NCBI GenBank assembly: GCA_003554525.1
Contig: PWGO01000021.1
Coordinates: 1 to 34,575, forward strand
From: Syntrophomonadaceae bacterium
GTDB taxonomy: Bacteria > Bacillota > Dethiobacteria > DTU022 > PWGO01
Direction: 5' to 3'
DNA: 34,575 nt
Part shown: in pieces, positions 3,270 to 22,202 of the stretch
Layout of the letters: each line of letters starts with the position of its first letter
Position numbering within the stretch: position 1 is the first letter of the stretch
Notes under the pieces: generated by a model
The model's input: the letters and a program-made list of their open reading frames with translations, nothing else
What the model was told of the DNA's origin: nothing
Database searches by the model: none
Made by a program: the position numbers and the translations under genes

Positions 3270-3376
3270 CTAAAGATTGCTTCCATCATACCCCCCATAG
3301 GCTAACTTGCTGCCATCGGGCGAGTATTCCATATCAAAAATTTGACCTTCGTGAATATCCAGAACCCTTTTTGTAC
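3270..3376 (-). pseudogene. WD40/TolB-like fragment left of the IS630 insertion
   Basis: On the minus strand the sequence next to the IS encodes VLDIHEGQIFDMEYSP followed by DGSKLAYGGYDGS and then a stop at 3270-3272. G-x-I-F-x-M-x-Y-S-P-D-G is the classic beta-propeller (WD40/TolB) repeat pattern. This piece is not in frame with the secreted-protein ORF on the other side of the IS (5190-5675): removing the IS joins that ORF to a different frame ending at 3302-3304. Either the host gene was already frameshifted or two different relics meet here. The rest of 3159-3378 contains no supportable gene. Confidence 0.5.
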
Positions 3377-3378
3377 TA

Positions 3379-3402
3379 GTACAGCGTCCCATAAATTCGT
3401 TC
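3379..3402 (+). repeat. IS630 left terminal inverted repeat
   Basis: 24 bp, starting GTACAGCGTCCCATAAATTC. It is perfectly complementary to 5166-5189 and directly preceded by the TA duplication at 3377-3378. Confidence 0.92.
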
Positions 3403-3572: not shown

Positions 3573-3749
3573 ATGCAAACCTACGATATCAAATATCTGG
3601 TGTCAAGGCTCACCTTACAGCAATTTTGGGTACGGGAAACCTGTACTGCCCTTAAAGAGAAGCCTACTTGCTGGCAAAAAGTTCAGTTATTACCTGTAAA
3701 CAGATCGCTGTGGAGGTTTGCTCTTTTTGTCAAGGGGGGTCGGCAGTGA
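3573..3749 (+). CDS. small ORF preceding the IS630 transposase, 58 aa
   Basis: The ATG at 3573 has a clear AAAGGAG at 3558-3564 (8 nt spacing), and the frame is open to TGA 3747-3749. The product (it begins MQTYDIKYLVSRLTLQQFWV) is basic and tryptophan-containing, with no recognised domain. Its end overlaps the start of the transposase in another frame by about 23 nt. It may be a small IS protein, a leader whose translation controls transposase expression, or the 5' part of a frameshift-made fusion. The transposase alone already has a full-length N-terminal HTH domain. Confidence 0.5.
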   Translation: MQTYDIKYLVSRLTLQQFWVRETCTALKEKPTCWQKVQLLPVNRSLWRFALFVKGGRQ

Positions 3750-4833
3750 TCCGACCCAAGAGCAAAGAGGTGAACTGCAAACCATCTTGGGCAGCCATAA
3801 ATCCGAACAGCGTTTATTTCTCAGGGCTTCGATTGTCTGGCAGCTGTTTGAAGAGAGGCGCCCGGTAGCCAAGGTCGCCCGAAACCTACAAGTATCGGCA
3901 AAAACCGTGCGTAAATGGGAATCCCGTTTTATGGACCAGGGCATGGACGGTCTTGATGACCTGCCGCGGATTGGTGCTCCGCCCAAGTTTCGTGTTGAGC
4001 AACGCTGTGAAATTATTGCCATCGCTTGTGATAAGCCGGAAAATTACGGTTTCGAAGGGGAGGCCAAATGGACGCTCAACACCCTGACAGAAGCAGTCAA
4101 CAAAAACATCGACACCCTTGAGATAAGCCGCAGCAGTGTGCACCGCACTCTGACGGAAGTGGATTTAAAACCGCACCGGATCAATATGTGGCTGCACAGC
4201 ACAGACTCCGAGTTCAAGGAAAAAGTAAACGACGTAGTCGCACTGTACAATGAGCCGCCCCAAAACGCCGTTGTCTTATGCGTCGATGAAAAAACCGGCA
4301 TGCAGGCCACAGAACGCAAATATAAAACCGAAGGACCGCAGCCGGGCAAACAGGGCAAATACGAACACCATTACAAACGCCACGGCACCCAGTCGCTGTT
4401 CGCTGCGTTTAATACCCAAACCGGTCATGTAACTGGTTGGTGTAACGATACAAGAAGAGCAGAAGACTTGCTCGAGTTCATGGAAGTATTGGCAGGTAAA
4501 TACGCGCATGTAGAGAAAATAATCATCATCTGGGATAACCTGAATACCCACTTAGACGGCCCATCAAAGCGCTGGACAGAATTTAACAAAAGGCACGGGA
4601 ACAAGTTCGAGTTTCATTACACTCCCATCCACGCTTCCTGGGTCAACCAGGTGGAGCTTTTTTTCTCCATTTTACAGAAACGCTGCTTAAAACACGGTAA
4701 CTTCCGCTCTGTCCAGGACCTGAAAACAAAGGTCATGGCCTTTATCCGGCGCTGGAATGAAAAAGAAGGGCACCCGTTTAACTGGACTTTTCGTGGTTAT
4801 CCCTTGCAAAACCAAAAGAAAGAGGTGGCATAA
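3727..4833 (+). CDS. IS630-family DDE transposase
   Basis: About 368 aa. The N-terminal part is a helix-turn-helix region (VAKVARNLQVSAKTVRKWE, then a second winged-helix segment around ISRSSVHRTL). A DDE catalytic domain follows, with Asp in VVLCVDEKTG, Asp in IIIWDNLNTH and Glu in HASWVNQVELFFS, which is the IS630 D-D-E arrangement. It binds the 24-bp ends and moves the element by cut-and-paste into TA. TTG 3727 is the more likely start because TGGAGG at 3711-3716 is 10 nt away; the TTG at 3718 is too close. The stop codon is followed immediately by the ATG of the 99-aa ORF. No disabling mutation is visible. Confidence 0.92.
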   Translation: MSRGVGSDPTQEQRGELQTILGSHKSEQRLFLRASIVWQLFEERRPVAKVARNLQVSAKTVRKWESRFMDQGMDGLDDLPRIGAPPKFRVEQRCEIIAIACDKPENYGFEGEAKWTLNTLTEAVNKNIDTLEISRSSVHRTLTEVDLKPHRINMWLHSTDSEFKEKVNDVVALYNEPPQNAVVLCVDEKTGMQATERKYKTEGPQPGKQGKYEHHYKRHGTQSLFAAFNTQTGHVTGWCNDTRRAEDLLEFMEVLAGKYAHVEKIIIIWDNLNTHLDGPSKRWTEFNKRHGNKFEFHYTPIHASWVNQVELFFSILQKRCLKHGNFRSVQDLKTKVMAFIRRWNEKEGHPFNWTFRGYPLQNQKKEVA

Positions 4834-5133: not shown

Positions 5134-5675
5134 CCGGGAAATACTTCTCTGATATTTTTTTCAAAGAACGAATTTATGGGACGCTGTACTAGTATGAAGC
5201 CACTTTCTTTTTCCGTATTATAATAATAGTTCCTTCTTCCAATCTTATATACTATATCATATTCAGGTAACTCTTCTATATGCAAGCTTGAATCAAATGG
5301 TCCTAATAGCATAAAAAACTCATAACTATTTTTTTCTTTATTAAAATCAAGCATTAATTTGTACCTTATTTTACCATTATAGGTAACAAAATAGTGCTTC
5401 CCGGTTTTATTTAAATCAAAATCCTTAAACTTTGGCGTTTTATTTTCTTTCATTATTGCTTCCCCTTGAGTTAATGGATTAAAATGGTAAACTTTTGCTT
5501 CATTTTTTACCTTTGGCCTTATAAATTCTTTTTCTTCCATTTCTATTTCTTCCATGATTCTGTCTTCAGTTTCTTCCAACCAATTATTGGCTACTTCTTC
5601 AGGAGTCGATTCAGCAAAAGCGTAAGTTTTAGTAAATAACAATAAACAAGCAATTATCATAATACTCTTTATCAA
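5130..5675 (-). pseudogene. exported protein gene truncated by IS630
   Basis: The frame starts at TTG 5675 with AGGAG 8 nt upstream and opens with a signal peptide (hydrophobic MIIACLLLF core, probable type I cleavage after TYAFA). The native part covers about 161 residues to position 5190; the last 20 residues up to TAA 5130-5132 come from IS sequence. The body is acidic near the N terminus (an EETEDRIMEEIEMEEKEF stretch), then strand-rich (HYFVTYNGKIRYKLMLDF, YDIVYKIGRRNYYY). No family is recognised. The left flank of the IS carries a beta-propeller-like fragment in a different frame. AT-rich codon use differs from the flagellar genes and suggests acquired DNA. A palindromic repeat sits 29 bp upstream of the start. 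Confidence 0.7.
5166..5189 (-). repeat. IS630 right terminal inverted repeat
   Basis: 24 bp, the exact reverse complement of 3379-3402, followed by TA at 5190-5191. The 3' end of the interrupted minus-strand gene now reads through this repeat into the IS. Confidence 0.92.
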
Positions 5676-5704
5676 TTATACCACTCCTTTTATTTTTTTA
5701 AATT

Positions 5705-5850
5705 GTAACTACTCAGGCATCCACTGCTGCGCCAGGGGGACGGTTACATCGTCTTCCCTTCGGACCTCCGCTTCGCTCCGGTGACGCTCGAACCGTCCCC
5801 GCAGGCGCAGCATGCCTCTTAACTTACTTTTACTTGGCTTGAGTAGTTAC
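5705..5850 (-). repeat. palindromic mobile-like repeat, copy A (146 bp)
   Basis: The ends are inverted (GTAACTACTCA at 5705-5715; TGAGTAGTTAC at 5840-5850). Inside them GCTGCGCC (5726-5733) pairs with GGCGCAGC (5804-5811), and GGGGACGGTT pairs with AACCGTCCCC (5791-5800), so the whole unit can fold into one long hairpin. It is flanked on both sides by the 8-bp direct repeat TTTAAATT (5697-5704 and 5851-5858), the mark of a transposition event. It has no coding capacity. A near-identical copy is at 10448-10595 and a diverged one at about 22050-22202. Best read as a MITE-like element; a GTAA terminus with 8-bp duplication would fit mobilisation by an IS66-type transposase, which is an inference. 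Confidence 0.88.
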
Positions 5851-5884
5851 TTTAAATTTTAGATTCAACAACCAGTATCTTCTT

Positions 5885-7651: not shown

Positions 7652-7736
7652 TGGTAACTGCTCACGGTGTGAAAGCTTAGGGGAAAAAAGCCCCCCCACC
7701 TTTAATTCCTCCCCCGCCAGGGGTTAGCCCGGCAAA

Positions 7737-8587: not shown

Positions 8588-8593
8588 CCCCTC

Positions 8594-8644
8594 TCATGGT
8601 TCTAACTCATGGTTCTAACTCATGGTTCTAACTCATGGTTCTAA
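8594..8644 (-). repeat. 13-bp tandem repeat in the leader of the BFN gene
   Basis: TCATGGTTCTAAC (plus strand) is repeated three times at 8594-8632, with a fourth unit lacking its last base (8633-8644). The array ends 6 bp before the GTG start of the minus-strand BFN gene. On that strand each junction reads ATGAGTTAG, a two-codon start-stop unit. The array could change length by slippage and alter leader spacing or translation. Confidence 0.9.
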
Positions 8645-10405: not shown

Positions 10406-10447
10406 GTTTATTATCTATCCTCCTTTAACCGCGTAACTTAATTATTT

Positions 10448-10595
10448 GTAACTACTCAGGCATCCACTGCTGCGCCAGGGGGACGGTTCCATCGTCTTCC
10501 CTTCGGCCTTGCGCACAGCTAAAGGTGACGCTCGAACCGTCCCCGCTCAGCGCAGCATGCCTCTTAACTTACCCTTCCCTGGCTTGAGTAGTTAC
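10448..10595 (-). repeat. palindromic mobile-like repeat, copy B (148 bp)
   Basis: It has the same ends (GTAACTACTCA ... TGAGTAGTTAC) and the same internal arms (GCTGCGC with GCGCAGC; GGGGACGGTT with AACCGTCCCC) as copy A, with differences mainly in the central loop region. The flanks are AATTATTT (10440-10447) and AATTATTA (10596-10603), an 8-bp direct repeat with one mismatch. It is in the same orientation as copy A relative to the downstream minus-strand gene, which starts 43 bp away. If transcribed it would place a long hairpin in the leader of the NIL-ferredoxin operon. Confidence 0.88.
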
Positions 10596-10660
10596 AATTA
10601 TTAAAGCTATTATAACATATTACTGCAGCAGGTGAGTACCTCCCTTATAGAGGTACAATA

Positions 10661-10685
10661 TAAAAGCCTGAATTATTTACCAGGC
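10661..10685 (-). terminator. terminator of the flagellar/chemotaxis operon
   Basis: On the minus strand GCCTG and CAGGC close a 10-nt loop and are followed by TTTTATATT, 30 bases after the cheR stop. A second, 7-bp hairpin (GTACCTC/GAGGTAC, 10636-10656) follows without a T-run. Together they separate the motility cluster from the NIL-ferredoxin operon. Confidence 0.55.
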
Positions 10686-21943: not shown

Positions 21944-22049
21944 TGAGGTTATACCTCCAAGACCGTTTTATAAACTACACGCTCTTGCATCTGTTAACTT
22001 AATATTTTCTACACCGCACCCTGATTTTCCTGTCGCAAAATTTTTTGCA

Positions 22050-22202
22050 ATTGCTCAGTCGGTTAATGCTGTGCCGGGGAAAGGGGATAAGCCCCGATTG
22101 CCTTTTTCTGATAACTCTAACCTGGCCTGTATTGGCTCGAACCGTCCCTTCAGGCACAGCAGCTTCACCTTACCCCTCATTTTGCTCCACCTGAGCAGTT
22201 AA
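22050..22202 (-). repeat. palindromic repeat, diverged copy C
   Basis: The left end has GCTCAG (22053-22058) and the right end CTGAGCAGTTAA (22191-22202). The arms GCTGTGCC (22068-22075) and GGCACAGC (22153-22160) correspond to GCTGCGCC/GGCGCAGC in copies A and B, with a C-to-T change on one side matched by G-to-A on the other. GGCTCGAACCGTCCC is shared with the other copies. It lies in the same orientation, upstream of the swrB-like gene, and its right end is read as the last codons of the sigma-factor gene. No clean direct repeats are visible, as expected for an old insertion. Confidence 0.65.

What the first reader, a model, noticed from the sequence alone, without database searches (positions are those of the whole stretch)
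5705..5850. Palindromic MITE-like repeat family with 8-bp target duplication
Copies A (5705-5850) and B (10448-10595) share ends GTAACTACTCA and nested complementary arms. Copy A is flanked by exact TTTAAATT repeats and copy B by AATTATT(T/A). That is direct evidence of transposition of a non-coding 146-148 bp unit. The GTAA terminus and 8-bp duplication would suit an IS66-type transposase in trans.
Basis: partly seen in the sequence, partly recalled or inferred. Interest (0 to 1): 0.65.

Follow-up and report, generated by a model that had tools for sequence, protein, structure and literature searches.

The report
IS66-type mini-transposons carrying shared hairpin cargo
The two repeats are real non-autonomous mini-transposons (MITEs) with the ends and 8-bp target duplications of IS66 insertion sequences; their hairpin centre is a cargo that also rides in a second, unrelated kind of mini-transposon in related bacteria.

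Summary
Both copies lie exactly where stated. They belong to a large family: 106 exact GTAACTACTCA ends in the genome. Of 35 TIR-bounded elements, 22 have 8-bp target duplications (≤1 mismatch; shuffled-flank mean 0.98, maximum 6), and no other length fits. The IS66 reading holds. Plasmid elements ISGka4, ISGst1 and two more IS66 elements from Bacilli have GTAACTAYTYAG ends with exact 8-bp duplications. A same-order relative (G021) carries a decayed IS66 tnpC element with GTAACTGCTCAG ends, an exact duplication, and a 165-bp MITE derived from it. Near tnpC genes of this subfamily the end occurs in 10 of 12 loci, against 0 of 12 in other IS66 loci. No IS66 transposase is in the host's draft genome, so the helper is missing, unassembled or lost. 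The unexpected part is the centre. GGGGACGGTTC…GAACCGTCCCC stays conserved across genera while the arms diverge. It also rides in a second chassis with CACTACAGCGAAAG ends and 4-bp YTAR-type duplications (11 of 14 exact). The same motif bounds RAYT genes in relatives. The MITE is a new member of a known kind; the shared, REPIN-like cargo makes it a new variant.

The parts
5697..5704 (.). left 8-bp target duplication of copy A (TTTAAATT)
5705..5850 (+). MITE copy A, 146 bp
5705..5718 (+). left terminal inverted repeat GTAACTACTCAGGC (IS66-type end)
5736..5800 (+). REPIN-like palindromic core GGGGACGGTTACATCGTC...GACGCTCGAACCGTCCCC (cargo)
5837..5850 (-). right terminal inverted repeat
5851..5858 (.). 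right 8-bp target duplication of copy A (TTTAAATT)
10440..10447 (.). left target duplication of copy B (AATTATTT)
10448..10595 (+). MITE copy B, 148 bp
10479..10544 (+). REPIN-like core of copy B
10596..10603 (.). right target duplication of copy B (AATTATTA, 1 mismatch)
22047..22202 (+). decayed third copy (ends GCAATTGCTCAG / CTGAGCAGTTAA, core remnant GCTCGAACCGTCCCT, flanks AATTTTTT / TATTTTTT)
   Evidence: read from the sequence
7654..7690 (+). one end of a second, core-less subfamily with the same terminus (GTAACTGCTCACGGTGTGAAAGCTTAG...); far end not found; extent approximate
   Evidence: compare L050, L035

Best explanation
The units are MITEs of the IS66 type (single-tnpC subgroup, ISGka4/ISGst1-like). 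An IS66 transposase acting in trans binds the GTAACTACTCA ends, moves the 146-bp unit and leaves an 8-bp duplication in AT-rich DNA. Shown: ends, duplications, copy number, the same ends and duplication on IS66 transposase-bearing elements, and birth of a MITE from an IS66 element in a relative. Inferred: that an IS66 transposase moved these particular copies, since none is in the assembly. The arms are free to change, but the centre is a REPIN-like palindrome (GGGGACGGTTC...GAACCGTCCCC), probably derived from a RAYT-type element (RAYT: REP-associated tyrosine transposase). It is carried as cargo and is not needed for transposition, because core-less members also have duplications. The same cargo rides a second MITE chassis with different ends and 4-bp duplications. 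The confidence given is for the IS66-type MITE; for the RAYT origin of the core it is about 0.6.
For: 106 exact ends. 22 of 35 pairs have 8-bp duplications, null mean 0.98 and maximum 6, only length 8 works; 13 carry the core and 9 do not. IS66 element L148:1096-2110 has 24-bp TIRs and duplication AAAAAATA; its 165-bp deletion derivative has AAATAAAC. ISGka4, ISGst1, Planococcus and Anoxybacillus IS66 elements have GTAACTAYTYAG ends and exact 8-bp duplications. Ends sit beside tnpC in 10 of 12 loci against 0 of 12 for other IS66 loci. Full element G033:C122:1528-3971 has perfect 21-bp TIRs, TnpC and a DruA-like ORF. Cargo: 17 A-chassis and 15 B-chassis elements classified by TIR, 12 of 17 and 11 of 15 with their own type of duplication; Y1/RAYT genes bounded by GGGGACGGTTC / GAACCGTCCCC in 7 of 30 loci.
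Against: No IS66 transposase was found in the host draft at E 0.001 with PF03050 or at E 0.01 with the G033 TnpC, although many copies there are 99% identical and look recent. The complete G033 element lacks a target duplication. No exact orthologous empty site could be shown, because synteny around copy B is not conserved in relatives. No RAYT with exactly the core's inner sequence (CCATCGTC) was found.
Confidence: 0.9

Rival explanations
1. The units are moved by a non-IS66 transposase present in the host that happens to use GTAA ends and 8-bp duplications.
For: No IS66 gene in the host draft.
Against: The 12-bp end and 8-bp duplication match named IS66 elements and IS66 loci of the same order, while other IS66 loci lack the end. 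About 18 contig ends of the draft lie inside this repeat (contig lengths), so multicopy elements are under-assembled.
Confidence: 0.07
2. The whole 146-bp unit is a single RAYT-mobilised repeat (a large REPIN/BIME) and the outer ends are incidental.
For: Core ends equal the ends of RAYT genes in relatives; the core occurs in copies where no TIR was recognised (23 of 65, many of them with degenerate A ends).
Against: RAYT/IS200-type transposition is not known to make target duplications (general knowledge), while these have 8-bp duplications directly outside the TIRs. Core-less members also show them.
Confidence: 0.02
3. The core is conserved because it is a useful RNA or DNA hairpin (mRNA stabiliser, protein-binding site, regulator), not a mobile cargo.
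For: The core is conserved in sequence across genera while arms vary; strong fold; both window copies sit just upstream of a minus-strand gene start.
Against: No Rfam match; no terminator-like site inside the unit; presence in two MITE chassis is typical of mobile DNA. Not excluded.
Confidence: 0.2
4. The two chassis exchange the core by recombination or template switching between palindromes, without any RAYT acting on it.
For: In G040 both chassis share the core plus about 12 bp of arms on each side (CCGCTAAGCCAC...TGGCnCCGCTTA).
Against: Does not explain how the core first entered, nor why its ends equal the ends of RAYT genes.
Confidence: 0.35

Closest known systems
IS66 family, single-tnpC elements ISGka4 (pHTA426) and ISGst1 (pGS18)
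   Same: End GTAACTATTCAG (one base from GTAACTACTCAG) and an exact 8-bp target duplication, both tested on the plasmid sequences
   Different: The window units have no gene, are 146-148 bp, and carry a GC-rich palindromic core
Bacterial MITEs with a known parent IS (MITEPsy1, PMC3189936; MITECca01 of an IS982 element, PMC9769881)
   Same: Short non-coding units with the TIRs of a parent IS
   Different: Parent family is IS66; a conserved cargo is shared with a second MITE chassis
REPINs / RAYTs (PMC3116915, PMC2817692)
   Same: Inverted pair of the motif that bounds RAYT-type (Y1, NF047646) genes in relatives
   Different: Inner stems of the RAYT-flanking REPs (X...X') are not kept; the copies in this genome lie inside MITEs with target duplications
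[quoted passage not shown]
   Same: REP dimer nested in a longer palindrome
   Different: There the outer palindrome was not identified; here it is a MITE with TIRs and target duplications

Membership tests
MITE | short, no coding capacity, multicopy, terminal inverted repeats | tested here: met
MITE | flanking target-site duplications of fixed length | tested here: met
   8 bp in 22 of 35, null 0.98
IS66 family (non-autonomous member) | GTAA...TTAC ends shared with transposase-bearing IS66 elements | tested here: met
IS66 family (non-autonomous member) | 8-bp target duplication | tested here: met
IS66 family (non-autonomous member) | IS66 transposase in the same genome (expected for an active family, not required of a MITE) | tested here: not met
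   PF03050 and the G033 TnpC find nothing in G000, a 190-contig draft, 96.6% complete
IS66 family (non-autonomous member) | mobilised by an IS66 transposase | not testable with these tools
   needs a transposition assay
REPIN / RAYT system (core only) | pair of inverted motifs that also flank RAYT genes | tested here: met
   GGGGACGGTTC / GAACCGTCCCC at both ends of 7 of 30 Y1 genes in relatives
REPIN / RAYT system (core only) | each REP folds as its own hairpin as in the RAYT flank (X-motif-X') | tested here: not met
   the X' stem is absent after GGTTC in the core; the isolated half-core folds weakly, z -0.61
REPIN / RAYT system (core only) | dedicated RAYT with the same core in the host | tested here: inconclusive
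   host Y1 genes are partial or have GGGACA-type flanks
CGTC-tagged REPs (PMC3733652) | CGTC tag, 8-9 bp stem beginning with AT, loop of 4-5 | tested here: not met
   CGTC is present but no such stem follows (read)

The most novel reading that the evidence does not exclude
RAYT-type miniature palindromes use DDE-type MITEs as vehicles: they enter the palindromic centre of MITEs of different families (IS66-type, and a YTAR-duplicating type), even stacking a second GGGGACA palindrome in the first one's loop, and so spread without their own transposase. This would explain REP families that lack a dedicated RAYT and REP dimers found inside unexplained long palindromes.
Probability: 0.35. Interest if true: 0.7.

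Novelty: new variant of a known kind. Interest (0 to 1): 0.5.

Why it matters
It ties a large orphan repeat family in a little-studied anaerobe lineage to a definite transposase family. It also gives a clear case of a REPIN-like palindrome riding inside two independent MITE types with their own target duplications, which offers a concrete, testable route for the spread of REPs that have no transposase of their own.

Tried and rejected
Looked for IS66 in the host genome: none. The 2.7-kb stretch between two ends on C91 holds ORFs that read as a cold-shock protein and a DEAD-box helicase (my reading of the translations) and has no target duplication, so it is not taken as a transposon. Orthologous empty site through cheR next to copy B: the NIL-ferredoxin neighbour was not found beside cheR in relatives. 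The short 52-68 bp forms are better read as deletions at short repeats than as pre-insertion chassis. Rfam scan of copy A: nothing. Terminator scans: none inside the units; one weak site at 10666-10685 outside copy B. Literature: the core string occurs in no relevant held paper. Three distant genome hits of the end-plus-core pattern (Lachnospiraceae, Propionibacteriaceae, Oribacterium) lack the full architecture when read.

Full report
OBSERVATION. The sequence at 5705-5850 and 10448-10595 is as described. Copy A is bounded by GTAACTACTCAGGC / GCTTGAGTAGTTAC and by exact TTTAAATT duplications; copy B by AATTATTT / AATTATTA. The end motif is far above chance in the window (6 sites with up to 1 mismatch, 0.24 expected), and the unit folds much better than shuffles as RNA or DNA.

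FAMILY IN THE GENOME. The host genome (2.3 Mb, 190 contigs, 96.6% complete) has 106 exact GTAACTACTCA sites (0 for the reversed-pattern control) and 44 BLAST matches to copy A, many at 99% identity and many cut by contig ends. Loci around the sites were collected. Of 35 distinct TIR pairs, 22 have an 8-bp duplication with at most 1 mismatch. Shuffling right flanks among elements gives mean 0.98 and maximum 6 in 2000 trials, and no other length from 4 to 11 gives more than one. Some of the 35 pairs are wrong pairings or tandem ends, so the fraction is a lower bound. Targets are 83% A+T in a window of 54% A+T. Several subfamilies share only the ends: the 146-bp unit with the GC-rich core, a 'CACGGTGTGAAAGCTTAG...GGTGTCAAGTTACC' subfamily of variable length (up to about 350 bp), and short deletion forms.

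LINK TO IS66. Pfam DDE_Tnp_IS66 finds nothing in the host, but 14 of the 60 genomes searched (host and relatives) have it. A complete element in G033 (L086:1528-3971, 2444 bp) has a perfect 21-bp TIR GTAACTACTCAGCCTACCAGT, TnpC (NF033517, 320 bits) and a DruA-domain ORF; it has no duplication. In G021 a decayed tnpC element (L148:1096-2110) has the 24-bp TIR GTAACTGCTCAGCTCTTTGACAAA with an exact 8-bp duplication. Less than 1 kb away, a 165-bp unit with the same TIR, made of the element's two ends, has its own exact duplication: a MITE derived from IS66 by internal deletion. For loci matched by the G033 TnpC, 10 of 12 have an inward GTAACTRCTCAG (at most 1 mismatch) nearby; 12 other IS66 loci have none. 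On plasmids, ISGka4, ISGst1 and the Planococcus and Anoxybacillus IS66 elements have GTAACTATTCAG or GTAACTACTTAG ends and exact 8-bp duplications. The IS66 assignment of the ends is therefore tested, not recalled.

THE CORE. The centre GGGGACGGTTCCATCGTC...GACGCTCGAACCGTCCCC is almost unchanged between MITEs of different genera and families, while the arms between TIR and core are hardly alignable. The half-core pattern occurs in 21 of 60 genomes, also where the exact GTAACTACTCA end is absent (G008: 16 cores, 0 exact ends). Reading 65 core loci, nearly all from relatives, gave 17 with IS66-type ends (12 with 8-bp duplications of at most 1 mismatch), 15 with another terminus, CACTACAGCGAAAG, of which 11 have exact 4-bp duplications (TTAA, CTAA, CTAG, ATAG, GTAG), ten with one recognisable end and 23 unassigned, many of them with degenerate A ends. 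For 14 B elements the shuffled-flank null for exact 4-mers is mean 2.4, maximum 8, against 11 seen. A and B chassis in the same genome (G040) share the core and about 12 bp of arm on each side. A second palindrome (GGGGACACACC...GTCCCC) sits in the core's loop in some copies of both chassis.

ORIGIN OF THE CORE. Among 30 Y1-transposase loci from core-rich relatives, 7 are bounded by GGGGACGGTTC on the left and GAACCGTCCCC on the right, and 3 by GGGGACGGGG-type motifs. One tested protein passes the NCBIfam REP-associated tyrosine transposase cut-off (89.3 against 80) and another falls just short (79.6). The core therefore looks like a miniature of a RAYT-type element (inference). It is not a textbook REPIN: the inner stems of the RAYT-flanking REPs are missing.

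HOW IT WORKS. Shown: insertion with 8-bp duplication, IS66-type ends, MITE formation from IS66 in a relative, and dispensability of the core for insertion (9 core-less members with duplications). Inferred: trans-mobilisation of these copies by an IS66 TnpC that is unassembled or lost, and the cargo status and RAYT origin of the core. Unknown: how the core passed between chassis.

COMPARISON. MITEs with known parents are well known (MITEPsy1, PMC3189936; MITECca01, PMC9769881). REP dimers inside long palindromes were noted in Anabaena and Halothiobacillus without identifying the outer palindrome, and CGTC REPs were said to lack a dedicated transposase (PMC3733652). The present case identifies the outer palindrome as a MITE. 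In a scan of 84,980 species genomes the pattern end-plus-core falls almost only in MAGs labelled Syntrophomonadaceae, Dethiobacter or unclassified Bacillota/Firmicutes (the window's own genome may be left out of that scan).

LIMITS. The host is a fragmented draft; relatives are at genus-to-order distance, so no exact empty site was available; the sampling of core loci is not random.

Noticed in passing
22047-22202: A third, decayed copy with both ends, core remnant and a 7-of-8 target duplication.
   Followed up: partly
7654-7690: One end of a core-less subfamily with the same terminus (GTAACTGCTCACGGTGTGAAAGC); no second end found.
   Followed up: partly
8593-8644: Four head-to-tail copies of the 13-mer CTCATGGTTCTAA between two ORFs.
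   Followed up: no
3374-3402 and 5166-5194: A perfect 29-bp inverted repeat (TACTAGTACAGCGTCCCATAAATTCGTTC) 1.8 kb apart, spanning a DDE_3 transposase gene at 3718-4833; may be its ends or a duplicated fragment.
   Followed up: no
L086:3006-3875: The complete IS66 element in a relative carries a DruA-domain (PF14236) ORF beside tnpC, a possible accessory gene or a link between Druantia's DruA and transposons.
   Followed up: partly
L159, L173, L175, L176, L306, L332, L334, L344: A second MITE chassis with CACTACAGCGAAAG ends and YTAR-like 4-bp duplications; its parent transposase was not sought.
   Followed up: partly
L053 and L054 (host contig C157): Two near-identical broken Y1 genes flanked by GGGACAAAGGGACAGGTCCATTGTCCC hairpins, a RAYT-type arrangement in the host with a related but different motif.
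   Followed up: partly
L172: One core lies inside a third kind of palindrome (TGTATATATTCAGT...ACTGAATATATACA).
   Followed up: no
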